The notes beneath the pieces are model-generated. The model was given only the letters and a program-made list of their open reading frames with translations. It searched no databases and was not told where the DNA came from. A stretch of DNA of 47,434 nucleotides from positions 1 to 47,434 of the forward strand of contig JAKPFN010000094.1 of NCBI GenBank assembly GCA_029551395.1. Direction: 5' to 3'. Position numbers and translations under genes: made by a program. Each line of letters starts with the position of its first letter. Positions within the stretch are counted from its first letter, which is position 1. Origin of the DNA: Armatimonadota bacterium (lineage in GTDB: Bacteria > Armatimonadota > UBA5829 > DTLH01). Positions 1,164 through 44,693 of this stretch are shown here, one piece after another.

Positions 1164-1910
1164 ATGGAGTTCTTCAGACCTAAACGCGATGGTCGAGGCT
1201 TCACATTAATCGAACTCCTCGTTGTCATCGCCATTATCGCTATTCTGGCTGCCATTCTGTTTCCAGTCCTCACAAAGGCCAGAAAACGTGCCAGAATGGC
1301 GTCATGTGCCTCTAACCTCAAGCAGCTTGCAATGGCTGTGTTCCAATACTCGGATGACTACTACGGTTGTCTGCCGCGTGTGTGGGTTGTGAACGATGCA
1401 GGAAGTGAAACCAGGTTATCAAGTGACGAAAAAGCAGTCACAAACAATATCTACCGCCAGTATAACCTTACATATCAGGCTCTCAGGCCTTATGTTAAAT
1501 CAGACAAGCTCTTTGATTGCAAGGAAACCTGTGACATTGAGGTTAGCTGGGTACGTGATGGCGCGAAGCCATACGAGATAGACTACTGGTTCAATGAATG
1601 CATGAACTACTGGTTCGAAGGAAATAGCCCGTCAGGTCTGAAAGCCAGAGTGCAGATAAAGCGATTGTCGCAGTGCACTTACCCCAAGCAGTTTTACATT
1701 GTCCGCGACAGGCACAGCACACACCACTTTGCAACTAACGATGAAGGTCAGAGCACCTGGGTTATGTTGATGGTCATGGCAGACGGACACTTGCCAAATA
1801 AGGTGCTTATTTATTCTGACAGAGACCGCAACAATATATTCAAGCCTTACCATTGGGATTTTCCGAATTGCCATCCAGGTGTGGATCCCTCGGCTCAGTC
1901 TGATTACTAA
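1164..1910 (+). CDS. Prepilin-like protein with class III N-terminal leader
   Basis: The 248-residue product starts with a short basic leader, then G12 | FTLIELLVV, the canonical prepilin peptidase site with Glu at +5, and a hydrophobic helix to about residue 35. The next block ([20 protein letters not shown]) is the signature of the abundant pseudopilin-like secreted proteins of Armatimonadota and Planctomycetes. The C-terminal part is aromatic-rich and has no recognised catalytic motif. The ATG at 1164 is chosen because CAGGGGG lies 7 bases upstream and because longer in-frame starts fall inside the promoter. The protein probably sits in the inner membrane or at the surface through a type II or IV machinery. 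Its substrate and role are unknown. Confidence 0.85.
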
Positions 1911-1950
1911 CTGAAAAACTGAAACAGACCATTTGCGCGAGTTGTCCTAA

Positions 1951-1984
1951 GGGTGATAGAGTATGTTATGATACTCTATCACCC
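1951..1984. promoter_or_regulatory. 14-bp perfect palindrome overlapping a possible promoter
   Basis: GGGTGATAGAGTAT (1951-1964), a 6-base loop, and its exact complement (1971-1984) form a perfect inverted repeat. TTGTCC (1942-1947) and TATGAT (1967-1972), 19 bases apart, make a weak promoter whose -10 lies inside the repeat. It could be an operator for the nucleotidase gene at 2033 or a terminator hairpin for the upstream gene. No U-tract follows on the + strand. Confidence 0.5.
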
Positions 1985-2032
1985 ATACGCGTATTATTTA
2001 TGAAGCGTTAGAAAGGACCTTTTAAGTATCGC

Positions 2033-3580
2033 ATGGTGCGTCACACACTGCTTATTCTGTTCTTTTTTGCTTTGACTCTGCATTTCGCTGCCGCAGCAGA
2101 CTATGTTTTGATTACTTTGCTCCATACCAACGACCTTCATGGCGCAATCATGCCGGAAAACGCTCCAGGATTGGCAAAAGCGGCTGCTTTGGTCCGTGGA
2201 ATACGAACGGACATGCCCAACGTAATCCTTTTGGACGCCGGAGACATGTTTCATGGCACGTTAGAAGATTATCTAACGTTAGGGCAGGCGACCATAAGCG
2301 CCATGAACGCCGCAGGCTACAATGCTGCTGCCATTGGCAACCATGAGTTCGATTATGGTATTGACGTTACCAGAAGTGTTGTCAAATCAGCCTCTTTCCC
2401 GATGATTTCTGCTAATCTGAGAAACAAGACCACAGGTCAGAGTTGGGATAAAGTCACTCCGTATGTAATAATTAATGCCGGCGGTGTAAGAATCGGTATA
2501 CTTGGGCTTGCTTCATTGGAAACCATAAGCCTCCATTGGCCATCTGAGATTGAAGATGTCAGCGTTCTTGATCCGATATCAACGGCTAAACTTCTAATCC
2601 CAGAGTTAAGACAACAGGTAGATGTGGTTGTGGTCCTTTCTCATCTTGGATACAAGTTGGATAAGGAACTGGCGGCAGCCATACCCGGTATAGATTTTAT
2701 TGTCGGAGGGCATTCCCATACTACGCTTGATAAATGGGAATGGGTTGGAGATACACTCATCACGCAGGCCGGTGCCTTTGCTCGTTACCTTGGTAGAATC
2801 GATTTCATCGTTGCCATAGATGAAAGCGGCAGCAAAATAGCATCAGTTAACGGTAAAGATGGTAAGACTTGGAATGATCAGATCAATAAACCATTGGGAA
2901 AAACCTATCCAACATCTCCCTTGATACCTGTCGATGTTCAAACGCTGGATGATGAAGCTGTTGTTTCTGCCTACCTCCCATACCGCGAGTATGCGAATGC
3001 AGTGCTTGATGAAGTGATAGGTAAGGCTGTTGAGCCGGTTCCTAACTCTACGGTTGCTTCCAGCGAATCTCCCGCAGCAAATCTCGTAGCTGATGCCATT
3101 AAGATGGTAACAGAAGCAGATATTGCGCTTATAGATGTCCGTTCTGTAGACTCCGGCCTGTTACCTGGGCCAATCAGGCGAAGAGATGCCTACGATTTGA
3201 TGGGTGGTTATACCAGGCAGCGGTTGGTGACTGTCCAGGTTAAAGGAAGCGAGTTAATCAGTGGTTTAGCCGAACGATTGCTGAAAGACAACAAACTCAG
3301 GCTCCAAATATCTGGTGCAGAGATCACTTTTAATCAGATAAATGGCAGCAAAGCCAATATTGCCGCATTGACTATTGGAGGATATCCGATAGACGTTAAT
3401 AAAGAGTATACTGTGGCTGGGCAGGCATACGTGATTCAAGGTCTAATGGAAATCCATCCGAATCTAAAGGTTATTTCGGATGATTTTTCCACTACACGAG
3501 AAGCTATTTCCCAGTATATAGAATCTATCAAAACAGTTCGCTCTCCAGAAACAGGAAGAATCAAACCAATCGATCGGTAA
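2033..3580 (+). CDS. Secreted 5'-nucleotidase / metallophosphoesterase (UshA-like)
   Basis: A 515-residue two-domain enzyme that hydrolyses nucleotide phosphomonoesters outside the cytoplasm. An N-terminal signal peptide (residues 1-22, ending AAA) is followed by the calcineurin-like metallophosphatase motifs in order: HTNDLHG (31-37), DAGDMFHG, IGNHEFDYG, LSHLGY and GGHSHT, which carry the dimetal ligands. The second half matches the 5'-nucleotidase C-terminal substrate-binding domain (SPAANLVADA, then GGYTRQRLVTV near the recognition loop). Length fits the UshA/CpdB group. AAAGGA lies 15 bases before the ATG, a somewhat long spacing. It is the first gene of a rightward run ending in a sugar ABC importer, so nucleotide or nucleoside scavenging is plausible. 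The exact substrate cannot be told. Confidence 0.9.
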   Translation: MVRHTLLILFFFALTLHFAAAADYVLITLLHTNDLHGAIMPENAPGLAKAAALVRGIRTDMPNVILLDAGDMFHGTLEDYLTLGQATISAMNAAGYNAAAIGNHEFDYGIDVTRSVVKSASFPMISANLRNKTTGQSWDKVTPYVIINAGGVRIGILGLASLETISLHWPSEIEDVSVLDPISTAKLLIPELRQQVDVVVVLSHLGYKLDKELAAAIPGIDFIVGGHSHTTLDKWEWVGDTLITQAGAFARYLGRIDFIVAIDESGSKIASVNGKDGKTWNDQINKPLGKTYPTSPLIPVDVQTLDDEAVVSAYLPYREYANAVLDEVIGKAVEPVPNSTVASSESPAANLVADAIKMVTEADIALIDVRSVDSGLLPGPIRRRDAYDLMGGYTRQRLVTVQVKGSELISGLAERLLKDNKLRLQISGAEITFNQINGSKANIAALTIGGYPIDVNKEYTVAGQAYVIQGLMEIHPNLKVISDDFSTTREAISQYIESIKTVRSPETGRIKPIDR

Positions 3581-3622
3581 GCAGAATACCTTTTACTCAA
3601 AAGATGCCAGGTGGAAGCTTCT

Positions 3623-4960
3623 ATGAACGGCTGTACAGGCCAGAAGGCGATATTTAACTTCAGAAATGTTGTTCTATTCATCGTAATAATTGCTGTAGTT
3701 TTGATTGCTCCCGGCTGTGGGCGCGAATCAGCCAGCAAAAAGAACAAAGGTAAGGTTACGTTGACTCTTGCCTGCTGGGAAGGTCCTGAAGGACTCCAGG
3801 CGCTCAAAGTTTTGCTGGATCAGTATAAAGAAGAGCATCCAAATGTGGATATCGAGATACAGCAGGTCCCTGGGAGTCAGTATTATCAGCGGCTGAAGAT
3901 CCAGTTTGCCGGCGGTGTTGCTCCTGACATTATGCAGCTTGCCTACGATCAGCTTCCTTCGTTTGCCAGCAAGGGAACCATTGAGCCTCTTGACCGATTG
4001 ATAGAGCGTGACAAATTCCCGATAAATGACATGTTCCCACAAGTGCTGCCTGCTCTGAAGTATAAAGGCCAGTTCTACGGGCTACCTCGCGGCTGGACTA
4101 CTTTCGTGCTTTACTATAACAAAGATATGTTCCGTGAAGCCGGTGTGCCGTTCCCTCGAGAAGGTTGGACGTGGGATGACTTTCTTTATGCCTGCAGGAA
4201 GATCAGCAAAGACACTGATGGAGACGGGAAAATCGACCGTTTTGGCTGCGATGGCGGCGTTCAGTACGATGCAATAGCGCCTTGGGTCTGGCAAAACGGA
4301 GGCAGAGTGTTTACTCCAGACATGAGCCGCTGCCTGCTTAACAGCCCGGAAGCAATTGAAGCATTGCAATTCCTTCAAGACTGCCAGAAGAAGTATAAGG
4401 TTTTTCCATCCCCAATGCAGGCTCAGGACCTCGGAGGAGGAGGGGAGATGTTCAGAAGCGGCAGACAAGCGATGTTCATCCAGGGACGATGGGCTTGTCT
4501 TTCATTCCGCGATGCCGCCTATCCTGATGGCCGTAAGATTAACTGGGATGTTGCCCCGCTTCCTGGAAAAAAAGAAGAAGCCACCGTTCTGTTCGCTAAC
4601 TGCTATGTGCTTCGCAAGGATGGCCCGAATCTCGAGGAGGCATGGAAGCTGATGCAGTTTTTAACAGGCTACACAGGGCAGGCGCATCAGGCCAGGACTG
4701 GTCGAGATATGCCGTCACTTGTGTCTGTTGCTCAATCTCCTGATTTTATGGATCCGAATAATCCTCCTGAACATGATGAAGTGTTTTTGCAGGTTGCAGA
4801 ACATGCGCGTCCGCTTGAACTTGATGAAAATGCAGGCGCGTGGGGTGATATGCTGAACGGATACCTGATTAAGATCATGAGCGGTCAGATGACGGCAAAA
4901 GATGCTATGAATGAGGCAGTTCCTCAGATCAACAAGCTGCTTGCTAGAGGTAAAGAATGA
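3623..4960 (+). CDS. Sugar ABC transporter substrate-binding lipoprotein
   Basis: A family 1 extracellular solute-binding protein (UgpB/MalE type) that delivers a carbohydrate to the two permeases encoded next. Residues 14-31 are a hydrophobic export signal ending in APG-C32, a lipoprotein-like cleavage site. The mature part has the family features: LDQYKEEHPNVDIE, then QFAGGVAPDIMQL, the GLPRGWTTFVLYYNKDMF hinge and the FIQGRWAC region. Length (445 aa) is typical. The ATG at 3623 is chosen over the GTG at 3611 because AGGTGG lies 8 bases upstream of it. The stop overlaps the next start by 4 bases. No ATPase gene is nearby, so a shared MsmK-type ATPase elsewhere is likely. The sugar bound is unknown. 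Confidence 0.92.
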   Translation: MNGCTGQKAIFNFRNVVLFIVIIAVVLIAPGCGRESASKKNKGKVTLTLACWEGPEGLQALKVLLDQYKEEHPNVDIEIQQVPGSQYYQRLKIQFAGGVAPDIMQLAYDQLPSFASKGTIEPLDRLIERDKFPINDMFPQVLPALKYKGQFYGLPRGWTTFVLYYNKDMFREAGVPFPREGWTWDDFLYACRKISKDTDGDGKIDRFGCDGGVQYDAIAPWVWQNGGRVFTPDMSRCLLNSPEAIEALQFLQDCQKKYKVFPSPMQAQDLGGGGEMFRSGRQAMFIQGRWACLSFRDAAYPDGRKINWDVAPLPGKKEEATVLFANCYVLRKDGPNLEEAWKLMQFLTGYTGQAHQARTGRDMPSLVSVAQSPDFMDPNNPPEHDEVFLQVAEHARPLELDENAGAWGDMLNGYLIKIMSGQMTAKDAMNEAVPQINKLLARGKE

Positions 4961-5865
4961 AAAAGGTCAAGAAAAAGAGGCGGCTTTTAGGTCGAGATAC
5001 CCTCGCTGCTATAGGATTTTTATCTCCAAGCCTGGTAGGATTGGCTATTTTCGTCGTCGGGCCGATCATAGGTGCAGCAACGATAAGCTTGTTCGATTGG
5101 GAGATACTGACACCGCCTAAATTCGTTGGTTTCGCTAACTATGTGGCTATTTGGGATGAGTTAGCCAACGGTAAGGTACTGCGCCAGGTCTTCGCAAACA
5201 CGCTTTATTTCACAGCCGGCACGGTGCCGCTTGCAATGGCTGTATCGCTTGGTATCGCGCTTCTTCTGAACAGAAAGCTCTTCGGTGTTGCCGCGTTCAG
5301 AGTAATCTACTTCCTGCCGACTGTTACGAGCATCGTTGCCCTTTCCATAATCTGGAGATTGATGTATAACCCTGACTACGGCCTTATTAACCGTGCACTG
5401 GAGATGATCCACCTGCCAGGCCCAGGTTGGTTGGCTGATCCTCATTGGGCAATGCCTGCTATCATCATTATGAGCGTGTGGACTGGCATCGGGTATAACT
5501 CGATACTCTATCTTGCAGGTATGCAGGGGATTGCTTCCAGTTATTACGATGCTGCACAGGTTGATGGAGCCAATGCCTGGCAGCAGTTCAGGCATGTGAC
5601 TTGGCCGCTTCTTTCTCCGACGACACTTTTCATCTTCACAATGTCCATTATCTCTGGTTTCCAGGTGTTTACTCAGATTTTTATGATGACTAGCGGGAAG
5701 CCTACACCTGAAACTCAGGTTTATGTTTACCACATTTACTCGCAGGCATTCACCAGCTTTAGGATGGGATATGCGTCTGCTCTGGCGTGTGTTTTGTTCG
5801 TGATTATTCTTTCTATTACGCTCATCCAGCTTTCAATTACTAAGCGATGGGTGCATTACGGGTAG
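4957..5865 (+). CDS. Sugar ABC transporter permease, MalF/UgpA type
   Basis: An integral membrane permease of 302 residues with about six membrane helices after a basic N-terminus. The cytoplasmic coupling (EAA) loop is visible as AAQVDGANAWQQFRHVTWPL at about residues 200-220; it docks onto the ATPase. The start overlaps the stop of the binding-protein gene in an ATGA junction, indicating translational coupling, and GAGGT precedes it. It pairs with the following permease to form the channel. Family assignment is secure; the transported sugar is not known. Confidence 0.93.
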   Translation: MKKVKKKRRLLGRDTLAAIGFLSPSLVGLAIFVVGPIIGAATISLFDWEILTPPKFVGFANYVAIWDELANGKVLRQVFANTLYFTAGTVPLAMAVSLGIALLLNRKLFGVAAFRVIYFLPTVTSIVALSIIWRLMYNPDYGLINRALEMIHLPGPGWLADPHWAMPAIIIMSVWTGIGYNSILYLAGMQGIASSYYDAAQVDGANAWQQFRHVTWPLLSPTTLFIFTMSIISGFQVFTQIFMMTSGKPTPETQVYVYHIYSQAFTSFRMGYASALACVLFVIILSITLIQLSITKRWVHYG

Positions 5866-5869
5866 TGCG

Positions 5870-6700
5870 ATGAAAAAACGGCGGCTCTTTGGAGACATCT
5901 TTGCATATATCATACTCTGTGCGGTTGGCATTTCTATGCTGGTTCCGTTTTGTTGGATGATTATTACATCGCTTCGGGATAAGACTGAGTTCTTTAGAGA
6001 GATCACCGGGCTTCTTCCAACCGGACCGCATTGGAGCAACTACATTGACGCATGGACTACCATGCCTTTCGGCCGTTACTTTTTCAACAGTTTCTTTGTT
6101 GCTGTCGTCGTGACATTTGGGCAGATGATTACCTGTTCTTTTGCTGCGTATGCGTTTGCCAGATTGAAATTCAGAGGCAGGGAGCCGCTTTTCAAAGGTT
6201 ATCTGAGCACTATGATGATCCCGCAGCAGGTTACACTTATCCCGCTTTTCCTGCTGATGGTCAAGTTCCGCTGGCTGGACTCATATTACGCGCTGATCGT
6301 GCCGTTCCTGGTGAGCGCTTACGGCTGTTTCCTGCTCAAGCAGTTCTTCCTGACGATTCCCGAAGATCTTGAAGATGCAGCCAGAATCGACGGCGCGAGC
6401 CACTGGAGCATTTTCTGGAGAATCATATTGCCGCTTTCCAAACCCGCATTGGCTGCATTCGGCGTGTTCACCTTCCTCGCAAGTTGGAACAGTTTCATCT
6501 GGCCGTTGATTGTTATCAGCCGTCCGACGATGAAGACACTCCCCATCGGCTTGCAGGCGCTTCAGGGGTTCTATGGCGACGGCAACTGGGCTGTTCTGAT
6601 GGCTGGTTCAGTCATTGCTGCATTGCCGATGATTGTCATCTTCCTGTTCGCTCAACGATATTTCATAGAGGGAATCACCCTGACGGGGATTAAGGGATAA
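5870..6700 (+). CDS. Sugar ABC transporter permease, MalG/UgpE type
   Basis: The second channel subunit, 276 residues, begins 4 bases after the first permease. It has a basic start, a first helix at about residues 13-30, and the EAA loop AARIDGASHWSIFWRIILPL in the second half, followed by the usual short C-terminal helix and FAQRYFIEGITLTGIKG tail characteristic of this family. Together with the lipoprotein and the first permease it makes a carbohydrate importer of the CUT1 class that lacks a linked ATPase gene. Confidence 0.93.
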   Translation: MKKRRLFGDIFAYIILCAVGISMLVPFCWMIITSLRDKTEFFREITGLLPTGPHWSNYIDAWTTMPFGRYFFNSFFVAVVVTFGQMITCSFAAYAFARLKFRGREPLFKGYLSTMMIPQQVTLIPLFLLMVKFRWLDSYYALIVPFLVSAYGCFLLKQFFLTIPEDLEDAARIDGASHWSIFWRIILPLSKPALAAFGVFTFLASWNSFIWPLIVISRPTMKTLPIGLQALQGFYGDGNWAVLMAGSVIAALPMIVIFLFAQRYFIEGITLTGIKG

Positions 6701-6733
6701 ATACCTAATCCGACTATTCAGGAGGCATATACT

Positions 6734-7492
6734 TTGCTGGCTAAATACGAGCAGGTTTGTTATGAACTACTGCGCCCGGAGCAGGTGAAGGAACTTCGGG
6801 AGAAATGTCCGATCGTTTATATCGTCGCTGGCTCTCTTGAGTGGCATAGTTGGCAAAATCCGCTCGGGACTGATTCACTCAAAGCCCATGCCATCTGTTG
6901 TGAAGCCGCTCTGAAATACGGTGGAGTCGTGTTGCCGCCGTTTTACCAGGGGTTGACAGGTGTAGATAACTGGGGGCCGGATGGTTGGCGCGGTTATACC
7001 CAGGCTTTCAACGAGCATGCTATGTTTGAAGCTGCCATGCGAGGGATCGTTAAAGCAATGATCTATGGCCAATGGAAGGTCATCGTTGGCATTACCGGAC
7101 ATGATGTTCCAGATCAGATGGAACTGATGCAGAAAGCTATCGAGGAAGAAACACGGGGAACGGGTGCAGTGGGATTTGCAGCAATGGAAGGCACATTCCA
7201 CGATCCTGACGAAGAAATTCCGTATGCAATAGACCATGCCGCTGCCTGGGAAACCTCCTGCATGATGTATGCTTATCCTGAGAAGGTGGATATGGACGCA
7301 CTGAAGCGGCATATCGTTTCAAATGAGGATTGGCTGGAGATCTTTGCCCCCGATGGTTCAAGGAATCCCGAAGGTATTATGGGAGCAAACCCGCTGAAGT
7401 TCGCCACACCGGAGATGGGTCGCAAGATCATCGAAAGGATGGCTGATCAGATAGGATCAAGAGCTAGAAAGTTGCTGGAAGAAAACAGTTGA
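6734..7492 (+). CDS. Creatininase-family amidohydrolase
   Basis: A 252-residue member of the creatinine amidohydrolase / formamide hydrolase family, which uses a dimetal centre to cleave cyclic or linear amides. The family signature appears as GSLEWHSWQNPLGTD, with the Glu, His and Asp metal ligands, and a later GITGHDVPDQ carries another likely His ligand. The start is TTG, 8 bases after a perfect AGGAGG. It lies 33 bases after the importer permease and is probably in the same transcript, which hints that its substrate is related to what the importer brings in. The first ligand block reads EWHSW rather than the more usual EQHGP, so the substrate may differ from creatinine. Confidence 0.82.
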   Translation: MLAKYEQVCYELLRPEQVKELREKCPIVYIVAGSLEWHSWQNPLGTDSLKAHAICCEAALKYGGVVLPPFYQGLTGVDNWGPDGWRGYTQAFNEHAMFEAAMRGIVKAMIYGQWKVIVGITGHDVPDQMELMQKAIEEETRGTGAVGFAAMEGTFHDPDEEIPYAIDHAAAWETSCMMYAYPEKVDMDALKRHIVSNEDWLEIFAPDGSRNPEGIMGANPLKFATPEMGRKIIERMADQIGSRARKLLEENS

Positions 7493-7519
7493 TTGTTCTT
7501 ACCATTTCAATGGCGTAAG

Positions 7520-7560
7520 CTGTGCAGGATAGTCTAACTTTTCAGGCCAATCCTGCACAG
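7520..7560. terminator. Bidirectional hairpin between convergent genes
   Basis: CTGTGCAGGAT (7520-7530) and ATCCTGCACAG (7550-7560) form an 11-bp perfect stem with a 19-base loop. It fills the gap between the convergent creatininase-family and idi genes. No strong U-tract is present on either side. Confidence 0.55.
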
Positions 7561-8097
7561 TTAAGAGCGTTTCTCTCGATAAGCGGCGATTACTCTGTCC
7601 AGCACCTCGCGCAGCCAGTATGAGTATTTATCAGGGTTCTGCTTCAGATCTCTTTGAAGATCGTCCACATGAACCCACTCCCAGTCCTGAACTTCTGTTG
7701 GGTTCGGCTGTGGTGTAACATCACCGCAAAACCCTATGAATACATGATCATACTCGTGTTCTGTAAGTTCGCTGCTTACCGGCGAGTGGTAGACGAAAGA
7801 CAGGATATGCTCCAAAGGGCAATCGAAGCCCATTTCTTCCATCAGCCTTCGGTGGGCTGCTTCCTCCGTTGATTCTCCAGGGCGAGGATGGCTGCAGCAA
7901 GTGTTAGACCACAGCCCTCCGGAGTGATATTTGTCATCAGCCCTTTTTTGGAGAAGGAGATTGTCCTGGTTGTTGAAAATAAAAACTGAGAAAGCCCTGT
8001 GCAGCTTTCCTTCTCGATGAGCTGCGACTTTCTCAGCAACACCAATTTCCCTATCGTCCTGATCGACGAGCACTACCTGGTCTTGGTCATCATTCAT
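7561..8097 (-). CDS. idi: Isopentenyl-diphosphate delta-isomerase, type 1
   Basis: A 178-residue Nudix-fold enzyme that interconverts isopentenyl and dimethylallyl diphosphate, the C5 precursors of isoprenoids. Diagnostic parts are LHRAFSVFIFN, the active-site segment TCCSHPRPGE with the catalytic Cys, the Nudix-like helix EEAAHRRLMEEMGF, and YDHVFIG. Length is normal for bacterial type 1 enzymes. ATG at 8097 is preferred; a TTG one codon upstream is also in frame. It follows the ThuA-like gene with the stop and start almost adjoining, so the two are probably co-transcribed. The window also encodes IspE, so the organism probably makes these precursors by the MEP pathway, where Idi balances the two products. 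Confidence 0.93.
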   Translation of the reverse strand: MNDDQDQVVLVDQDDREIGVAEKVAAHREGKLHRAFSVFIFNNQDNLLLQKRADDKYHSGGLWSNTCCSHPRPGESTEEAAHRRLMEEMGFDCPLEHILSFVYHSPVSSELTEHEYDHVFIGFCGDVTPQPNPTEVQDWEWVHVDDLQRDLKQNPDKYSYWLREVLDRVIAAYREKRS

Positions 8098-8100
8098 CAA

Positions 8101-8751
8101 TTAAAGCTTACCTGCAGCCCACAGCATGCCGCGCGTGGTAATTGTCAGCGCTTCAGGAACACGCACATCTGCTGCTACATGGCCTAGTGAACTGTAAAAC
8201 ACACGCCCATGCCCGTACATTTTCTTCCAAACAACCGGCATTACGTGTCCGTCAATCCAGAATGCGTGCTCTCCAGTGAATGTGGTTGTCGCTAGAACCT
8301 CATTATTCGGATCGACGTGCATATAATACTGCTCTGAATGCATCTTGAAGTCCGAAATACCTGCAGTAATTGGGTCTTCGTCGTCGATTATGTTCACCAC
8401 ATAATCGATCACGCCGCCCGGATGAGCCACCCACTGGCCTCCTACCATAAACTGGAACTCAGTCTCATTGCGGAATGCATCGCCGATGCCTCCATGCACT
8501 CCGGCTATTCCGGTACCGTTCTTAACAGCCGCCAGCAGCGGGTTAAGCTGCTCAGGAGCTATCGTTCCCATAGTCCAAATAGGCACGATAAGGTCCAGAG
8601 CCTCGAGTTTGGCCTGGTCTCGGAAAGAATCGAGAGTGTCAGATATCTCGACATCAAAACCATTTTCCTGGAGTGCTCCTCCCAGGATTTCAGCGACCTG
8701 TTGGGGTTCATGGCCGTCCCAGCCTCCCCATACTATAAGTGCAGAACTCAT
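8101..8751 (-). CDS. ThuA-like glutamine-amidotransferase-fold protein
   Basis: A 216-residue protein of the ThuA / trehalose-utilisation fold. Visible features are [13 protein letters not shown] at the start, a [15 protein letters not shown] nucleophile-elbow-like segment lacking the amidotransferase Cys, [20 protein letters not shown], and the [12 protein letters not shown] block near the end, all typical of the family. Members are found in sugar-catabolism clusters and are usually cytoplasmic; the enzymatic activity is poorly defined. AGAGG lies 7 bases before the ATG. The preceding tldD-like gene ends 96 bases upstream on the same strand. Confidence 0.85.
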
Positions 8752-8847
8752 ACAAAAACCTCTGGATTAGTAAAAAGTGTTAAGAGGAAAGTAAATGTTA
8801 ATCTTATCTACTTCCTTTATACAGATGGCAGTATTTGATTGGTTCCA

Positions 8848-10293
8848 TTACTCGATCAAACCTACCTGAACATTCTTAAACCTTGATGGAGCCACACCAT
8901 GCCCAACATGAGCCATCTGCATAGGTTCCCCTTTGCCGCAGTTCGGTGTGCCCCACATCTGCCATTCTTTCTGGCCTGCTATGGCATCGCATCCACCCCA
9001 GAATAGAGGAGTAATACCGGTGTAAGTGGGATTCTTGAACATCCTGCCAAGGCTGCCGTCTTTTATCTCCCAGGCTATCTCTGTGCCGAATTGGAAGTTG
9101 AGCCTCTTATCGTCTATACTCCAGCTTTTGACGGTAGCCATATAGATACCGTCCTTGGTATCTTTGATGATCTCATCGAAGGTCCAATCTCCAGGCAGAA
9201 GGTTGACGTTGGTCATTCGGATGATTGGGATTCTACCCCATCCGTCCGCTCTCATAGCTCCGCCGGATTTATCCCAACCCATCTGCGCTGCTGTTTCTCT
9301 TGACGAGAGATACCCTGAGAAGATTCCATTCTTCACTATGTCTATGCATTGAGCAGGCACACCTTCATCATCAAAGAAGAAGCTGCCGAGTCCGCCCGGT
9401 GCAGTAGCATCTGCTACTATGTTTACGATATCAGACCCATATCTGAAGCTGCCGAGCTTGTCAGTGGTCAGAAAACTTGTTCCAGCAAAGGAAGACTCTG
9501 TTCCGAAGACTCTGTCCAGTTCTATCGGATGTCCGCAGGACTCATGCACTTGCAGCCTGAGCATATCGCCATCGAGCACCAGGTCTTTGACGCCGGAAGG
9601 GCACAAAGGGGCTTTGAGCAGTTCCGCAGCCTCTTTAGCCGTATCTTCAGCATGTGCTGGAAAGTCCCAATGCTCCACAAATTCGTATCCGGCTGTTGCG
9701 TATTCGCCTCCTTTTGATGATGGATACGATCTCCGCTGCATTTCACCGGATTCAATGGCTGTGGCGCTTATCCCAGCACCGCTTTCGGTTTTAACCTGTT
9801 CAATGTAGCTGCCTTCCGTGCTTGCGAAGGTCTTATCCGTCTTCCAGAAGCGCATAACGCTCTCAGAGAGCTTCACTTCAGGCTGCTGGCGCATAATCTT
9901 ATCTGCATCCAGAAGCAGGTTGATCTTGTCTTCCAGTGGAACGTCGAATGGATCTATCTTCCATTCCGATTCAAAATGTCCTTCAGCAGGCTCGACAGGA
10001 GTAAGTTTGACATCTTCTTTTTTCAATCGGGAACTGGCTCGTGCTATGGAGACAGCTTCCCGGACTACCTTATCAGCTTCCTCATCGGTTACGGTGAAAC
10101 TCGATGCAAATCCCCACGAGCCGTTTACTATCACCCTGACACCGAATCCATAGTTAGTGGAAGAAGCTAAAGCGTCTACTTTGCCGTTTTTGACATTTAT
10201 GGACTCGTTGTCACTGCGGACAATCCGCACATCAGCGTAGCTTGCACCTAGATCGCGTGCTTTCTGCAGAACCTTTTCTGTGAATTCTTTCAA
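8848..10293 (-). CDS. TldD-type zinc metallopeptidase, solitary copy
   Basis: A 481-residue TldD-family peptidase; TldD acts with PmbA/TldE as a cytoplasmic heterodimeric protease on small unfolded peptides. The zinc motif HESCGH is clear, and a conserved Cys in NCGKGEP near the C-terminus matches the third zinc ligand of the family. The start is TTG, 9 bases after GGAGG. By eye it is about four-fifths identical to the second tldD at 14216, including long near-identical DNA blocks, so it is a fairly recent duplicate. Unlike the other copy it has no adjacent pmbA, being followed by the ThuA-like gene. It has its own promoter (10331-10359). Confidence 0.92.
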   Translation of the reverse strand: MKEFTEKVLQKARDLGASYADVRIVRSDNESINVKNGKVDALASSTNYGFGVRVIVNGSWGFASSFTVTDEEADKVVREAVSIARASSRLKKEDVKLTPVEPAEGHFESEWKIDPFDVPLEDKINLLLDADKIMRQQPEVKLSESVMRFWKTDKTFASTEGSYIEQVKTESGAGISATAIESGEMQRRSYPSSKGGEYATAGYEFVEHWDFPAHAEDTAKEAAELLKAPLCPSGVKDLVLDGDMLRLQVHESCGHPIELDRVFGTESSFAGTSFLTTDKLGSFRYGSDIVNIVADATAPGGLGSFFFDDEGVPAQCIDIVKNGIFSGYLSSRETAAQMGWDKSGGAMRADGWGRIPIIRMTNVNLLPGDWTFDEIIKDTKDGIYMATVKSWSIDDKRLNFQFGTEIAWEIKDGSLGRMFKNPTYTGITPLFWGGCDAIAGQKEWQMWGTPNCGKGEPMQMAHVGHGVAPSRFKNVQVGLIE

Positions 10294-16091: not shown

Positions 16092-17000
16092 TCATGCTGC
16101 GGCTCGTAATTTGTAGTTTCTTTCAAACTCCTCTGGGCTCATATAGCCAAGAGTTGAATGAAGTCTTTCTCTATTATAAAACACTTCTACATAATCAAAT
16201 ATATCCCTCCTTGCTTCGGCAATTGTTTTGTATTTTTTATTATAAATCAGTTCGGTCTTAAGTGAGCCGAAGAAACTCTCAGCAACAGCGTTATCCCAGC
16301 AATCGCCCTTGCGGCTCATTGATTGCCGTATGCCCAGTTTTTTGAGCTTATTTGTAAAATCATCACTTGCATACTGGCTACCACGATCTGAGTGGACGAT
16401 CAACCCCTGGCTGGGATAACTATTAGCAAACGCCATATCAAAAGCATCAAAGACAAGGCTTCGAGTTATGCGAGTGTCCATTGACCAGCCAACCACTTTG
16501 CGATGGAATAAATCGATAAATACAGCCAAATAAAACCAACCCTGCATCGTCCAGATATACGTTATATCAGAAACCCAGGCCTTATTCGGCTTATCAACAA
16601 CAAACTCCCGAGCAAGCAGATTCGGCGCGATCGGCTGATTGTGTTTTGAATCAGTTGTCGGCTTATACTTGCGCTTGCACTTTCTGAATATGCCAAACTT
16701 ACGCATAATCCGGCGAACCTCGCCTAAGCTGCAAATTATCCCTTTCTTTCTCAACTGAGCAAAGACTCGACGGTAACCATAAGCCCCACGGCCTTTTGCG
16801 TATGCAGCAAGAATCTGCTTCAAGAGCTGTTTCTCTCGCTTGCTCACAGCCTTGTGGTCACGCTTCTTCCAAGAATAAAAGCCGTGACGAGATACTTTTA
16901 GAACCCTGCAAAAAACACTTACCGGGAACTGCTTCTCATTCTCCAGGATATAAGCGTACCTTACCGCAGTTCCTTCGCAAAGTACGTCGCTGCTTTTTTT
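16092..17000 (-). CDS. IS3-family transposase OrfB (DDE integrase domain)
   Basis: This is the catalytic part of the transposase, read in the -1 frame from the slippery A7 run (16994-17000) to a stop at 16092; the frame is open throughout its 302 codons. The DDE residues lie in [18 protein letters not shown] and [16 protein letters not shown]. The N-terminal part contains the usual [20 protein letters not shown] and [12 protein letters not shown] helices. It is expected to be made mainly as an OrfAB fusion of roughly 385 residues by ribosomal slippage, and it performs copy-out paste-in transposition. No independent ribosome site for OrfB was identified. Confidence 0.92.
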
Positions 17001-17248
17001 AGTATTTCGATCTCCATTTCCATACGCCTGTTCTCACGGCGTAGTCTTATCAATTCGGACCGCTCATCTTCGATCTTGGCCGGATCGACAATTCCTTTAG
17101 CTTTCTTGTGATTCTTTATCCAGCCGGCAAGAGTGTTGGGATTCACACCCAGGCTCCTTGCAACTCCTGCTTTCGTCGCACCATGCTGCATCGCCATCTC
17201 AACAGCCTGAGACTTAAACTCATCAGAATATACACGCTGCTCTTTCAC
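16961..17248 (-). CDS. IS3-family transposase OrfA (HTH and leucine zipper)
   Basis: A 95-residue DNA-binding protein that recognises the element ends. It begins [18 protein letters not shown], has a helix-turn-helix ([20 protein letters not shown]) and a C-terminal heptad region ([20 protein letters not shown]) for dimerisation. A GTG at 17248 is chosen because GGAGG lies 8 bases upstream; ATG codons further upstream run into the terminal inverted repeat. The orf ends just after the A7 slippery run, CTA-AAA-AAA-GCA in the zero frame, and shifting back one base joins it to OrfB. Confidence 0.9.
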
Positions 17249-17282
17249 TCTAATATCCTCCAATCGCCAACACATTTTAGCA

Positions 17283-18107
17283 TCATGCAACGTGTACATT
17301 AAACCTGCGCATTACATGCTGAGCATCCAGAACACAAATATCTGAGACTCCAAAGATTATGAATCCCTTATCTTTGTCTTGAACAGAAGTCCATTCCCAT
17401 TGACCACTTTCCAAGCGAGTCCCACGAAAAAGTCCTCCATCACGATCTGTAGCCGCAAGTGCATGAGTAGTATCAAGCATCCTTATCAATGAGAACGCAG
17501 GAGGTGGAGTATTCGATGGGTCGCGAGTCCAATCATTCTGAGTGCTGGCGCGAAACTCAGAGAAATTAGTTGCCTTGGACCGTTCAAGATAATCCGGTGT
17601 ATCAACATAGCTCTCATAATATGGGTTCGCGACTGCACTGTAGTTAGCGTTTAGGTCAACGCCCCACATCGCCACAGGCTCAAGCCCCCACGGAGTCGAG
17701 TTAAATAGTAATGTGAGAGCAGAGTCCACAGACGCGTACCTCTCCCCTTGCACGATTCTCATTGGAACGCCGTAACATAATACTACTGCTTTGATCGGAT
17801 CAGCCGCAGCATTGTTTGGGTCAACTCCAAAACGCGATTGCAGGAAATTCTTGAGAGGTACCTGAATGTTGTTGACGAAATCGCTTGGCCAAATTGTTTC
17901 GTTAGGCGTTACTGTTACTTCCAATATATTGCTTAATGGTATTGCTCTCTGGTTGCAGTAGTATTCCCCGACCGCCCGTGAAACAGCAGCGACTGAGGGG
18001 TGATTGTTCACCACAACCACTACATCATTCGGAGTAAGTCCTGCTTGTGCAGACAGAGAGGAGACGACGAGCAGCAATACCGGCAACAGCCAGCATCTGC
18101 ACCTCAT
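17283..18107 (-). pseudogene. TIGR03790-like secreted protein, 3' end cut off by the IS
   Basis: The N-terminus has a signal peptide (residues 1-22, ending SAQA) and then a sequence like the TIGR03790 family: NNHPSVAAVSRAVGEYYCNQ, R-x-IP-x-x-NIL, and a later AVVLCYGVPMRI. The last 60 residues resemble a propeller or BNR repeat (ATDRDGGLFRGT, GQWEWTSVQ). Reading then crosses into the IS end, where the final residues are supplied by the element and a chance stop at 17283 ends the frame. The remainder is not recognisable on the other side of the IS. The ATG at 18107 overlaps the stop of the PEP-CTERM gene (ATGA) and has GGAG upstream. The function of the family is unknown; it occurs in genomes with complex envelopes. 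Confidence 0.7.
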
Positions 18108-40352: not shown

Positions 40353-40381
40353 TTGCATGTCCTGTTGTGTCGTGATATACT
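40353..40381 (+). promoter_or_regulatory. Promoter of the DUF488/RecQ operon
   Basis: TTGCAT (40353-40358), 17 bases, TATACT (40376-40381) preceded by TGA, an extended -10. It gives the four-gene operon its own start. Confidence 0.75.
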
Positions 40382-40418
40382 GCTGTTGCGTCAAAAATTG
40401 CAGCAGGCAGGCACACAA

Positions 40419-40892
40419 TTGGCAATCATTTACACAATCGGTCACAGCAACACTGCGGTAGCTGAGCTTATAAGCCTTTTGAAGGCGCATGGTATCGTGC
40501 TGGTTGTCGACGTCCGTAGCGACCCCTACAGTAAGTATGCTTCCCAGTTCAACAAGCGTGAGATAGAGGCCGAATTGCGCCGGTCAGGCTTTGAATATCT
40601 TTATCTGGGAGACAAGCTGGGCGGTAAACCGAAAAGTCCTGGCTTTTATACTCCAAGTGGTGCTCCTGATTACGAAAAGATGGCCCAGTCTGATGTATTC
40701 CGTGCAACGCTGGACGATGTAGTACGGATGGCAGCAGAAAAACCTTTGGCTCTTATGTGTTCTGAGGCTGACCCAAAAGCATGCCACCGTGACCGGCTGT
40801 TGGCATGGGTGCTGCGCGGCCAGGGGCATGACGTCCGGCATATCCTTCACGATGGTTCCATTCTAATAGAAGAACAGGGGACTTTGCTATGA
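40419..40892 (+). CDS. DUF488-family protein, first copy
   Basis: A 157-residue protein of DUF488, whose fold is related to rhodanese/phosphatase domains. The family motifs are all present: YTIGHSNTAV, VVDVRSDPYSKYASQFN, YLYLGDKLGG, and the C-terminal LMCSEADPKACHRDRLLAWV with the conserved Cys, Glu and CHR. The TTG at 40419 gives the normal start; a purine-rich site precedes it. Its stop overlaps the next gene by 4 bases. The family is predicted to act on nucleotides or nucleic acid ends. No reaction is established for this gene. Confidence 0.88.
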   Translation: MAIIYTIGHSNTAVAELISLLKAHGIVLVVDVRSDPYSKYASQFNKREIEAELRRSGFEYLYLGDKLGGKPKSPGFYTPSGAPDYEKMAQSDVFRATLDDVVRMAAEKPLALMCSEADPKACHRDRLLAWVLRGQGHDVRHILHDGSILIEEQGTLL

Positions 40893-41326
40893 CTATTTTT
40901 ACCATCGGTTCGAGTGGAAAAGGGTTGAGGAAGTTTGCAGAACTGCTGCTAGATGCCAATGTGGACTGCGTTATCGACATCCGGCTGCATAATACATCTC
41001 AGTTAGCAGGTTACGCTAAACAGGATGACTTGGAATTCGTCCTTGAGCTACTGAAAATCGCCTATGAACATCATATTGAGCTTGCTCCTGATTTAGAACT
41101 GTTCGAAGCGTATCGAAAGAGCAAAAATTGGGATAATTACGCCGCCGGATATAACGAACTGATAATCAAAAGAGATATGCTCTCGGTTGGAAAAGGGATT
41201 CTATCGCGTTACAAGCGTCCATGCCTGCTTTGCTCGGAAGACGCCCCTTCCAGGTGCCACCGTATTTTGTTGGCTGAGTACTTAGCTAAAAACATCCCTG
41301 GCTTGGAGGTAAAGCATCTCAGATGA
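40889..41326 (+). CDS. DUF488-family protein, second and divergent copy
   Basis: A 145-residue DUF488 protein of a different subfamily from its neighbour. Motifs are FTIGSSGKGL, VIDIRLHNTSQLAGYAKQDD (Asp-Ile-Arg in place of Asp-Val-Arg), LAPDLELFEAYRKSKNWDNY and LLCSEDAPSRCHRILLAEYL. It starts in an ATGA junction with the first copy and ends in a 4-base overlap with the dual-OB-like gene. Two different DUF488 subunits side by side suggest a heteromeric enzyme or two successive steps. Confidence 0.88.
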   Translation: MTIFTIGSSGKGLRKFAELLLDANVDCVIDIRLHNTSQLAGYAKQDDLEFVLELLKIAYEHHIELAPDLELFEAYRKSKNWDNYAAGYNELIIKRDMLSVGKGILSRYKRPCLLCSEDAPSRCHRILLAEYLAKNIPGLEVKHLR

Positions 41327-42006
41327 AAGACGATGTCGTCCTGCTGGCTGTAACCAAGATGCTCTCGGGGTTCTGCATTGGCGGGATATCGCTTTCGACC
41401 GGGAAATGGGTTCGCCCGGTTAAAGAACATGGAACGATTCTGCTTGGGGACATTCGCTACCAGGACGGCACTGTTATGAGACCGTTTGATGTAGTCAGGT
41501 TCGAGCTTACCAGCCACAGGCCAAAACCTCCTCATATTGAGGATTGGGTATGTGACTTTATAAAAGCCCGTCCTGAGCTTGTAGGCAGGCTGGAAGATGA
41601 AAAACGCTGGAGATTCTTGAAACGCTTCGCAGTCTCGGGCGGTGAAAGGGCAATTCTCTCCGGCAATCTATCTTTAATCCTTTGTTCTCCCACTCCAACT
41701 GCTGCCAGCTTTTTCCTTGACAATTATTCAGGTAAATACGATGCTCGTGTTTATGTGCGCGGGATCGAGAGCAAAAGAGGGATTCCTGTAACAGACCTCA
41801 AGTGGAGAGCGCTAGGACGAATGCTCCTGACAACAGAGAATCCATTAAAGCTGTCTGCTGCAAAACTGCGGGCTGTTGTGGGAATTCGGCAAATCTACCT
41901 TGCACTTGGACTGAGCAGGCTTCACGAAGGCCGTCATTGGCCGCTCGTAGTAGGAGTGCATACCTTTCCTGATTATGAATCGGAGATAGACTACTCGCAG
42001 CCTTAA
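41323..42006 (+). CDS. Dual-OB-fold-like protein
   Basis: A 227-residue protein. It begins VVLLAVTKMLSGFCIGGISLSTGKWVRPV, matching the start of proteins annotated as dual-OB-domain (C-I-x-G-I-x-x-x-T-G-x-W-I-R-P), then RPFDVVRFELTSHRPKPPHIEDW. The C-terminal half (DLKWRALGRMLL) may form the second domain. OB folds bind nucleic acid or small ligands. Its start overlaps the preceding stop, and the helicase follows 14 bases later, so a role in nucleic-acid recognition for the operon is likely. I assign the family from memory of the pattern, with moderate certainty. Confidence 0.65.
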   Translation: MKDDVVLLAVTKMLSGFCIGGISLSTGKWVRPVKEHGTILLGDIRYQDGTVMRPFDVVRFELTSHRPKPPHIEDWVCDFIKARPELVGRLEDEKRWRFLKRFAVSGGERAILSGNLSLILCSPTPTAASFFLDNYSGKYDARVYVRGIESKRGIPVTDLKWRALGRMLLTTENPLKLSAAKLRAVVGIRQIYLALGLSRLHEGRHWPLVVGVHTFPDYESEIDYSQP

Positions 42007-42020
42007 CTAAACAAGATTAA

Positions 42021-44693
42021 GTGGAAAACATCGACTGCAGCTTGAATATAACCGCTGAAAGATTGATGCGTCTGCCTCCGCGCCTTAGGACGCGGCTTCT
42101 GGATTTCCTGATCCGTTGGCTGAGGTATGAGGAAGCCCTTCCTATTGCCCGTCAGCTTGCAGCAAACCAACCTGAAGGGCTTCTTTATCGTGCTAATTTA
42201 GCCAGAATCCTTTCTGTTTTGGGACATTTTGATGAGGCAGAAACCATTGTTGCAGAGCTTGAAAACCAGTATCCTCAACGGCCAAGCACCATTGCTGCGT
42301 TTGGCGACCTTGAGATGGCGCGCGGAGACCTGCCTAAAGCGCTTAAATACTACCTTGAGATGCTCAAGCTGAATGAATCGAGTACCAGAGCATGGCGTCG
42401 TCTTGCGATGCTCTATCTGGCAGCGAACCAACTGGACAAAGCCTATACAAGCTGCAAAAAAGTGCTGAGTTTAGCAAAGACACAAAAAGACAGCAGTGAA
42501 GATAAGGCATGGACACATCCTGATGTCCTCCGCGTACTTTTACAAATATACAAAGCCCGTGGAGATGACGCGCTGGCTGCTGATATTCAAGCTAAACTGG
42601 CATTACAGGAGAAGGAAGAAGAAGACAATCTCCGAAGCGTTCTGGAGCAGGCCAAACCGGTTTTGTCCAAGTCCAGGCCAAAGCCGCATCCGACTTATTC
42701 AGAGCCGCCGGTCAATATTGAACCTGTTGAACCTCTACCGCCAACTCCGCCGCTTCATCCAAATGTGCTGAAGTGCCTGTATGAAGTTTTCGGGCATAAT
42801 GAATTTCGTTCCGGACAGGAAGATACCGTTTCCAGACTGCTTGCTGGTCAAGATTTGCTTGTGGTTATGCCTACAGGCGCAGGCAAATCGCTATGTTACC
42901 AGCTTCCAGCAGCGCTTGGCAGGCGAGTTGTAGTCATATCTCCACTTATTGCTCTGATGAAAGACCAGGTCGATGGGCTTCCGAAACAGCTTGCAGCCAC
43001 GGCAACGCTTATAAACAGCACTATCGAAAGCGACGAACTTGAACGCCGGTTATCAGGCATCGCTCACGGCCGATACAACCTGATTTACGCTGCTCCCGAG
43101 CGGCTTCGTCAGCCGCCGTTCCTTCATGTGCTTCGTAAGGCTGGTGTTGACCTGTTTGTTGTAGATGAAGTTCACTGTGTGAGCATCTGGGGCCATGATT
43201 TTCGGCCGGATTACCTGTTTATCGCTCCCGCGTTGGAACTTCTTGGCAATCCTCCATTCTGCGGGATGACTGCAACTGCCGGCCCTGCTATGCGTAAGGA
43301 AATTGAAAAACAGATAGGCCGCAAACTTCTTACAGTCAGCATCGGCACCTACCGGCCAAACCTTATGCTTGAGGTCAAGCAGGTTTCTAAAAACCTTGAA
43401 AAGCTCCGCACGCTGGCCCGAATTTGTCAGAACGAAACAGGCTCAGGAATCATTTATGCAAGCACCAGGGCAAAAACGGAGCAAATTGCGTCATACCTGC
43501 GGTCGGCTGGTATTGATGCCGGTTATTATCACGCAGGGATGGAACCGGAAGCCCGGGAAGCTGCACAGGAAGCGTTTATGTCAGGCCGATGCCGCGTAAT
43601 TGTAGCAACAGTTGCCTTTGGAATGGGTGTGGACAAGCGCGATGTCCGGTTTGTGGCACACTTCAGCCTTCCTAAATCACTGGAGAACTACTATCAGGAA
43701 GCGGGCAGGGCAGGCAGAGACGGACTTCCATCCAAATGTATCCTCTTTTACTCACCGGGAGATAGAGCGCGGCTTACGAACTGGACATCGGCAGACCAGA
43801 TGAGCATGGATCACCTGAAGCTGGTCTATGAAGCAATCAAAGCCAGCATCCCGACAGGAGCAGGGTTGGTACACGATGATGATTTGCAGCGTAATTCAGG
43901 ATTGGATGAGACGACGGTTCGTGTAGCGATAAGCTTACTGGAACGTGCTGGTCTCATTAAACGCAGGTTGGATGTCCCCATAAATGTGACTATCACCGTC
44001 CGTCCTGCTTCCGGCTTCGATGAAGAATTTGACCAATTCATTAGCTCCGCGCGGCTCCGCGAAGGACAAAAGATATCGCTTGAGGCCAGGGAGATAGCTG
44101 AAAGAACTGGACTCAATCTTTTTAACCTCGAATGGAAGTTGCTCGACTGGCGCGACAGAGGCTGGATCAACTACCGCAGCTCGGGAAGAACGATGTACAT
44201 CGAACGCTGTCAGGCTTCCAAAGGCTCAAAAAAGGTGCTGCAGGACTTGCTTGCTTCCTACAGTTCTGCAGCCGTCAGTAAGATAAATATCCTTGCAGCA
44301 TACGCTAAGACAAATCGATGCAGGCATGATTTTATTGCCAGGCATTTTGGAGAACAGCCGGTAAAAGGTTGCAAGTCTTGTAACAACTGCGTTAAACTGT
44401 ATGCAGAAAGCCACTTGACGGATGACCACATGTTAATCCTCAAAGGTGTTATCAGTCTCCCTGTTCGTTTGGACAGGATAATGCTGATAAAATCGCTGGC
44501 AGGACTGGGACGATGCCCAATCCAGCCGCATGAGTGGCCGCAGCTTGGGGCATTCAAAGGACGAAATCTGGATCTGATTGGCGGGCTTATAGACGACCTA
44601 ATCGAGTGGAAATACTTGGAACAGGATGGTAACTCGCTGCGCCCATTGCTCGTCATAACATCTGTAGGGAGGAAACTGGTCTCCTCTGTTTAA
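42021..44693 (+). CDS. RecQ-family DNA helicase with N-terminal TPR-like region
   Basis: An 890-residue protein. Residues about 30-200 form TPR-like helical repeats (RANLARILSVLGHFDEAE, LEMARGDLPKALKYYLEMLK), then a proline-rich linker. The RecQ motor starts near residue 253: GQEDTVSRLLAGQDLL, Walker A PTGAGKSLCYQLPA, DEVHCVSIWGHDFRPDY in place of the usual DEAHC, TATAG, and the C-terminal domain with YYQEAGRAGRDG. A zinc-binding set follows (CRHDFIARHF, then CKSCNNC), and a winged-helix-like region ends the chain. It unwinds DNA 3' to 5' by family. The start is GTG with a weak ribosome site. The TPR fusion is uncommon in RecQ proteins and suggests protein partners. Confidence 0.9.
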   Translation: MENIDCSLNITAERLMRLPPRLRTRLLDFLIRWLRYEEALPIARQLAANQPEGLLYRANLARILSVLGHFDEAETIVAELENQYPQRPSTIAAFGDLEMARGDLPKALKYYLEMLKLNESSTRAWRRLAMLYLAANQLDKAYTSCKKVLSLAKTQKDSSEDKAWTHPDVLRVLLQIYKARGDDALAADIQAKLALQEKEEEDNLRSVLEQAKPVLSKSRPKPHPTYSEPPVNIEPVEPLPPTPPLHPNVLKCLYEVFGHNEFRSGQEDTVSRLLAGQDLLVVMPTGAGKSLCYQLPAALGRRVVVISPLIALMKDQVDGLPKQLAATATLINSTIESDELERRLSGIAHGRYNLIYAAPERLRQPPFLHVLRKAGVDLFVVDEVHCVSIWGHDFRPDYLFIAPALELLGNPPFCGMTATAGPAMRKEIEKQIGRKLLTVSIGTYRPNLMLEVKQVSKNLEKLRTLARICQNETGSGIIYASTRAKTEQIASYLRSAGIDAGYYHAGMEPEAREAAQEAFMSGRCRVIVATVAFGMGVDKRDVRFVAHFSLPKSLENYYQEAGRAGRDGLPSKCILFYSPGDRARLTNWTSADQMSMDHLKLVYEAIKASIPTGAGLVHDDDLQRNSGLDETTVRVAISLLERAGLIKRRLDVPINVTITVRPASGFDEEFDQFISSARLREGQKISLEAREIAERTGLNLFNLEWKLLDWRDRGWINYRSSGRTMYIERCQASKGSKKVLQDLLASYSSAAVSKINILAAYAKTNRCRHDFIARHFGEQPVKGCKSCNNCVKLYAESHLTDDHMLILKGVISLPVRLDRIMLIKSLAGLGRCPIQPHEWPQLGAFKGRNLDLIGGLIDDLIEWKYLEQDGNSLRPLLVITSVGRKLVSSV

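What the first reader, a model, noticed from the sequence alone, without database searches (positions are those of the whole stretch)
40353..44693. Four-gene operon: DUF488 + DUF488 + dual-OB-like + TPR-RecQ helicase
Seen: one extended -10 promoter (40353-40381); 4-base overlaps joining the first three genes; a 14-base gap to a RecQ helicase that carries an N-terminal TPR region and has DEVH in place of the usual DEAH. The two DUF488 proteins belong to different subfamilies, and both keep the terminal Cys-x-Glu and CHR residues. Known, from memory: DUF488 is related to rhodanese/phosphatase folds, and comparative-genomics work has proposed nucleic-acid or nucleotide processing for the RapZ-C/DUF488/DUF4326 group, including conflict systems. 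Inference: the cluster is a DNA-end or base processing unit, possibly antiviral or for repair, with the OB-like protein binding nucleic acid and the TPR region recruiting partners.
Basis: partly seen in the sequence, partly recalled or inferred. Interest (0 to 1): 0.75.

Follow-up and report, generated by a model that had tools for sequence, protein, structure and literature searches.

The report
RecQ-linked paired DUF488 gene module
Four neighbouring bacterial genes combine a widespread, untested three-gene module already catalogued as a candidate anti-phage system with a dedicated DNA-unwinding enzyme, which makes it likely that the module acts on DNA.

Summary
The four genes and their junctions are real. 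DUF488a, DUF488b and DuOB match all three components (B, C, A) of the PADLOC candidate defence system PDC-M45. The triad recurs across many bacterial phyla, an archaeon and prophage contigs. In one genome it lies inside a BREX operon and in another inside an Hma operon.

The RecQ gene matches none of the PDC-M45 models. A RecQ-family helicase (TPR region, insert before the zinc-binding domain, degenerate RQC) follows the triad in only one DuOB clade: the window, two order-mates, another family of the same phylum, two Chloroflexota genomes and one unassigned bacterium. In four other triad-bearing order-mates the RecQ is on a different contig. Within the sampled phylum, all nine genomes with a clade-I DuOB also have this RecQ subfamily (21 of 291 genomes overall). 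The RecQ also exists without the triad.

Most likely the triad is a DNA-targeting module: the DUF488 pair is the enzyme, DuOB the nucleic-acid binder and RecQ the supplier of single strands. Whether it serves defence or repair is undecided; the window flanks are core genes without other defence genes. The mechanism is inferred, not shown. The promoter is no better than chance.

The parts
40373..40381 (+). Possible extended -10 element TGATATACT with TTGCAT at 40353-40358; not better than chance
   Evidence: Sequence; 28 such patterns in the window against 22 expected; not reported by the consensus scan
40419..40892 (+). DUF488a (PDC-M45B-like), probable TTG start at 40419 (ORF opens at 40353); keeps GHS, D-x-RS-x-PYS, C-x-E and CHR
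   Evidence: PF04343 77.9 bits; PDC-M45B 3.3e-45; alignments
40889..41326 (+). DUF488b (PDC-M45C-like, DUF488-N3a 'active'); keeps SQLAG-x-x-K, LLC-x-E and CHR
   Evidence: PF04343 71.7 and PF22751 38.3 bits; PDC-M45C 2.3e-39; invariant columns in 73 sequences; model pLDDT 93
41323..42006 (+). DuOB, dual OB-fold protein of a divergent clade (clade I), presumed nucleic-acid binder
   Evidence: PF22557 72.2 bits; PDC-M45A 9e-12; model pLDDT 95.7; best although weak structural matches are tandem OB-fold DNA binders, RADX and HIN domains; tree
42021..44693 (+). RecQ-family helicase: N-terminal TPR (residues 1 to about 200), DEAD/Helicase_C core with DEVH, about 180-residue insert, RecQ zinc-binding domain, degenerate RQC-like C-terminus, no HRDC
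   Evidence: Pfam; TIGR00614 374.6 bits above cut-off, TIGR01389 below its cut-off; subfamily alignment and tree

Best explanation
The locus is a RecQ-coupled variant of the DUF488-DUF488-DuOB module that PADLOC lists as the candidate defence system PDC-M45. Proposed mechanism: DuOB binds DNA (single-stranded or distorted); the two DUF488 paralogues, both with an intact Cys-x-Glu / Cys-His-Arg site, form one enzyme that modifies or removes something at DNA ends or on altered nucleotides; RecQ, an ATP-driven helicase, opens the duplex and feeds single strands, with its TPR region as a docking arm. Shown here: the genes, the conserved residues, the conserved triad, recurrent gene adjacency to and co-occurrence with one RecQ subfamily. 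Inferred: complex formation, DNA as substrate, the chemistry. The biological purpose is more likely defence against foreign DNA (about 55%) than repair (about 35%).
For: DUF488b, DUF488a and DuOB hit the three PDC-M45 components. Most phylum loci with a DuOB carry both DUF488 genes directly beside it, and the triad recurs in many phyla. It sits between PglX and BrxHI in L059 and between HmaB and HmaC in L111, and occurs in IMG/VR viral contigs. A natural DuOB-DUF488a fusion exists. RecQ follows DuOB in the window, G228, G229, L053, L056 and G347, and 1.1 kb away in G205. The flanks differ between the window and G228/G229 although the block stays together. Co-occurrence of clade-I DuOB with the RecQ subfamily: 9 of 9 genomes against 12 of 282 without it (Fisher 8e-12; within the order 7/10 against 0/9, p 0.0024; outside it 2/11 against 0/261, p 0.0015). 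Solitary DUF488b relatives lie next to uvrA or uvrB.
Against: RecQ occurs without the triad (G227, G204, G241, G242; most of the 29 Chloroflexota genomes, only 2 of which had a strong DuOB hit). Most triads lack a RecQ neighbour. Genomes are related, so the Fisher values are optimistic. The window flanks are core genes with no defence gene nearby. Structural matches for DUF488b and DuOB are all above E 0.001. No solved structure matches the DUF488 profiles by sequence. No biochemical evidence of any kind.
Confidence: 0.5

Rival explanations
1. Genome maintenance: the module repairs host DNA (for example adducts, crosslinks or blocked ends) together with RecQ and is not an anti-phage system in this lineage.
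For: Window flanks are core genes. In the order the triad and RecQ trees both group by family, which fits vertical inheritance. In two order-mates the triad lies near genes that read as ruvA/ruvB or ruvC (identified by eye). Orphan DUF488b genes sit next to uvrA/uvrB, and the uvrA version lies with S-formylglutathione hydrolase and alcohol dehydrogenase genes on an IncHI2A plasmid.
Against: Patchy presence even within the order (7 of 19 genomes); triad embedded in BREX and Hma operons and in viral contigs elsewhere.
Confidence: 0.33
2. The RecQ gene is an unrelated neighbour: the triad is an independent module that happens to be inserted before a chromosomal recQ.
For: The RecQ subfamily exists in many genomes without the triad; four triad-bearing order-mates have it on another contig; same-family G227 has the RecQ in another context without a triad.
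Against: Adjacency recurs in the same order and orientation in divergent genomes, confined to one DuOB clade, with 4-base overlaps in L026 and L203, and co-occurrence persists where linkage is lost.
Confidence: 0.15
3. The triad is a toxin- or effector-like module that acts on nucleotides, NAD derivatives or RNA ends rather than DNA.
For: The DUF488/RapZ-C/DUF4326 group has been proposed to act on sugars, nucleotides and nucleic-acid termini (Burroughs and Aravind 2023, from memory; paper not held). One plasmid relative sits beside a DUF4326 gene.
Against: Partners seen here are DNA proteins: RecQ, BrxHI/PglX, HmaB/HmaC, UvrA/UvrB.
Confidence: 0.12

Closest known systems
PADLOC candidate system PDC-M45 (components A, B, C)
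   Same: DuOB, DUF488a and DUF488b of the window hit M45A, M45B and M45C and are contiguous
   Different: DuOB match is partial (residues 4-79); RecQ matches none of the M45 models and is an addition of this clade; the candidate system has, as far as I know, no published test
DUF488-N3 conflict proteins of the RapZ-C/DUF488/DUF4326 clade (Burroughs and Aravind 2023, from memory)
   Same: DUF488-N3a 'active' domain and DuOB partner, Pfam models that passed the cut-off here
   Different: Whether that paper lists the RecQ-linked version could not be checked; DUF488a does not pass the N3a cut-off
RecQ family helicases (TIGR00614)
   Same: Helicase core, zinc-binding domain; RQC in relatives
   Different: TPR N-terminus, about 180-residue insert before the zinc-binding domain, no HRDC, below the RecQ equivalog cut-off; the genome has a separate, more canonical RecQ on contig C85
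BREX and Hma defence systems
   Same: The DUF488-DuOB triad can be embedded inside them (L059, L111)
   Different: The window has no methyltransferase, PglZ or other BREX/Hma gene near the triad

Membership tests
PDC-M45 (PADLOC candidate defence system) | All three component models A, B, C matched by contiguous genes | tested here: met
   M45B 3e-45, M45C 2e-39, M45A 9e-12 with partial coverage
PDC-M45 (PADLOC candidate defence system) | Anti-phage activity | not testable with these tools
   Needs phage assays; literature searches in the held library found no test
DUF488 (PF04343) | Both proteins above the Pfam cut-off and keep C-x-E / CHR | tested here: met
   77.9 and 71.7 bits against 22.2
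DUF488-N3a active subclade (PF22751) | DUF488b above cut-off | tested here: met
   38.3 against 27 bits
DUF488-N3a active subclade (PF22751) | DUF488a above cut-off | tested here: not met
   17.5 against 27 bits
Rhodanese-phosphatase superfamily fold | Structural match to a solved member | tested here: inconclusive
   No match at E <= 0.001; weak matches include tetrapyrrole-methylase-like enzymes and PTP phosphatases
DuOB (PF22557) | Score over cut-off | tested here: met
   72.2 against 27 bits; the matched stretch covers only profile positions 3-79 of 210
DuOB (PF22557) | Tandem OB fold of DNA-binding type | tested here: inconclusive
   AF2 model pLDDT 95.7; top weak matches RADX and HIN domains, E 0.006 and above
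RecQ family (TIGR00614) | Subfamily score | tested here: met
   374.6 against 219.8 bits
RecQ equivalog (TIGR01389) | Equivalog score | tested here: not met
   449.9 against 640.2 bits
DpdF (Dpd system helicase) | NCBIfam equivalog score | tested here: not met
   187.7 against 550 bits; the PADLOC DpdF hits are taken as generic RecQ matches
Defence island location | Other defence genes nearby in the window | tested here: not met
   Of 33 other window proteins one matched a PADLOC model at 1e-20 (mad3); the rest none

The most novel reading that the evidence does not exclude
Two active DUF488 paralogues, DuOB and a TPR-RecQ form one machine that unwinds DNA and performs a not yet described cysteine-dependent reaction on DNA ends or lesions, used for defence in mobile versions and for repair in chromosomal and UvrA/UvrB-linked versions.
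Probability: 0.2. Interest if true: 0.8.

Novelty: new variant of a known kind. Interest (0 to 1): 0.5.

Why it matters
DUF488 is a common domain without a known biochemical activity. Tying two active DUF488 subfamilies to an OB-fold protein and to one RecQ subfamily, in cis or in trans, narrows the likely substrate to DNA and gives a testable protein set. The independent links of the same DUF488 subfamily to UvrA/UvrB and of the triad to BREX and Hma operons point the same way.

Tried and rejected
DpdF identity of the helicase: rejected, NCBIfam score far below cut-off. Defence island in the window: rejected. One promoter as evidence for the operon: rejected as chance-level. Conserved flanks / empty-site test: the OEP-HlyD pair downstream is present in all relatives searched (HlyD not seen where the G235 contig ends), without the ribokinase or the triad upstream, so no simple insertion site could be defined. 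Joint fold of the natural DuOB-DUF488a fusion: given up because the mixed alignment put DuOB onto DUF488. Sequence search for a solved DUF488 structure: none. The PDB hits of the DuOB alignment to DapB come from a DuOB-DapB fusion in some relatives, not from the window protein. The key 2023 rhodanese-phosphatase paper is not in the library. HerA-like gene before the triad in L073: too weak and single to use.
Full report
Observation. The window holds four co-directional genes at 40353-44693. DUF488a/DUF488b and DUF488b/DuOB overlap by ATGA, and 14 bases separate DuOB and RecQ. Pfam confirms DUF488 twice, DuOB, and a helicase with TPR, DEAD, Helicase_C and RecQ_Zn_bind. Both DUF488 proteins keep C-x-E and CHR, invariant in the alignments. 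DEVH is real, but the five other RecQs in the alignment have DEAH. The promoter is not better than chance. The start of DUF488a is more likely TTG 40419 than 40353.

What it is. The first three genes match the three components of PADLOC PDC-M45, so the core was already catalogued as a candidate defence system. In 291 genomes of the window's phylum, 23 have a DuOB, and nearly all of these loci carry both DUF488 genes next to it; exceptions are G031, with a lone DuOB, and G205, whose contig starts at DuOB. The phylum is Armatimonadota by inference: two order-mate contigs (G240:C204, 6,244 bases; G235:C111, 32,008 bases) have the lengths of records titled Armatimonadetes. A scan of GTDB genomes with the DUF488b profile gave 580 relatives, a lower bound. 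Of the 80 best, 44 loci also hold a DuOB hit, from many phyla and an archaeon. IMG/VR holds 28 contigs with DUF488b, nearly all with DuOB; plasmid records also hold the protein; INPHARED phages none.

Defence context of the core. In L059 the order is PglXI, DUF488, DUF488b, DuOB, BrxHI; in L111 it is HmaB, DuOB, DUF488a, DUF488b, HmaC. Other neighbours include Gabija-, OLD- and AriA-like genes, a few cases each among 133 neighbours, without a background control. The window itself is different: flanks are transport, succinate dehydrogenase, peptidase and sugar-kinase type genes, and of 33 proteins only one hit a PADLOC model.

The RecQ partner. The helicase is RecQ-family but below the RecQ equivalog cut-off and far below DpdF. 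Relatives share a helicase core, an insert of about 180 residues before the zinc-binding domain and an RQC domain; one has HRDC. It follows DuOB directly in the window, G228, G229, L053 (unassigned bacterium), L056 (Ktedonobacterales) and G347 (Chloroflexota), and lies 1.1 kb downstream in G205. All of these that were placed in the DuOB tree fall in one clade of 11 rows (SH-aLRT 85). The flanks of the block differ between the window, G228 and G229. G235, G240, G243 and G244 have triad and RecQ on different contigs; G031 has a lone DuOB and a RecQ on another contig.

Co-occurrence. Reading for RecQs that reach the C-terminal extension gives 21 of 291 genomes; reading for strong DuOB hits gives 9, all among the 21. 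Fisher tests give 8e-12 overall, 0.0024 within the order and 0.0015 outside. Genomes are related, so these are upper estimates of significance. The converse fails: G227, in the window's own family, has a 60%-identical TPR-RecQ and no triad, and in Chloroflexota 29 of 400 sampled genomes have the RecQ subfamily but only 4 a strong DuOB hit, 2 of them with both. So RecQ has a life of its own and the triad of this clade seems to depend on it rather than the reverse (inference).

TPR. In two sister pairs of the RecQ tree (G240/G242, G244/G241) the member without a triad also lacks the TPR region. G228 and G229 keep the triad without TPR and G227 keeps TPR without the triad, so this is only suggestive.

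Structure. The DUF488b model (pLDDT 93) has weak matches to tetrapyrrole-methylase-like enzymes and PTP phosphatases, which fits the published superfamily as I remember it but is not significant. The DuOB model (pLDDT 95.7) finds RADX and HIN domains, tandem OB folds on DNA, as best but weak matches.

Mechanism. I favour a DNA-directed enzyme module: DuOB binds, the DUF488 pair reacts, RecQ opens the duplex. Supported steps are the gene association and residue conservation; complex, substrate and chemistry are inferred. Defence is favoured from the BREX/Hma embedding and viral contigs; repair remains strong because of the core-genome setting here and because orphan DUF488b genes lie beside uvrB or uvrA in Proteobacteria, the uvrA form on an IncHI2A plasmid next to S-formylglutathione hydrolase.

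Verdict. A new variant (RecQ-coupled) of an already catalogued candidate system.

Noticed in passing
L089, L090, L094, L104, L106, L107, L115 (uvrB within 166-376 bases); L113, L119 (uvrB 2 kb); L099, L103 (uvrA, 192 bases): Solitary relatives of DUF488b lie next to uvrB or uvrA in Proteobacteria, several with identical spacing across families, as expected of a recently spread element.
   Followed up: partly
L161 (plasmid MZ382871.1, IncHI2A), 1796-9909: uvrA-DUF488 pair on a conjugative plasmid together with fghA and an alcohol dehydrogenase gene, resembling an aldehyde-resistance island.
   Followed up: no
L039 2614-4188; also long DuOB ORFs in L024, L041, L042: DuOB fused to a complete dihydrodipicolinate reductase (DapB) in one genus; confirmed by Pfam for L039, inferred from length and alignment for the others.
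   Followed up: partly
L125 8731-9999: Natural fusion of DuOB and DUF488a in Candidatus Thiomargarita nelsonii.
   Followed up: partly
L059 6954-13954 and L111 5640-13803: Triad embedded in a BREX operon (PglXI ... BrxHI) and in an Hma operon (HmaB ... HmaC).
   Followed up: partly
L026 7580-9565: In G228 an unrelated 661-residue protein with a signal-peptide-like start, without Pfam match, sits between DUF488a and DUF488b.
   Followed up: no
L163 6001-7046 (plasmid NZ_KX863568.1): DUF488 gene directly followed by a DUF4326 gene on a Citrobacter plasmid.
   Followed up: no
window 16092-17299, - strand: Two adjacent ORFs that read like an insertion-sequence transposase pair (IS3-type by eye).
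   Followed up: no
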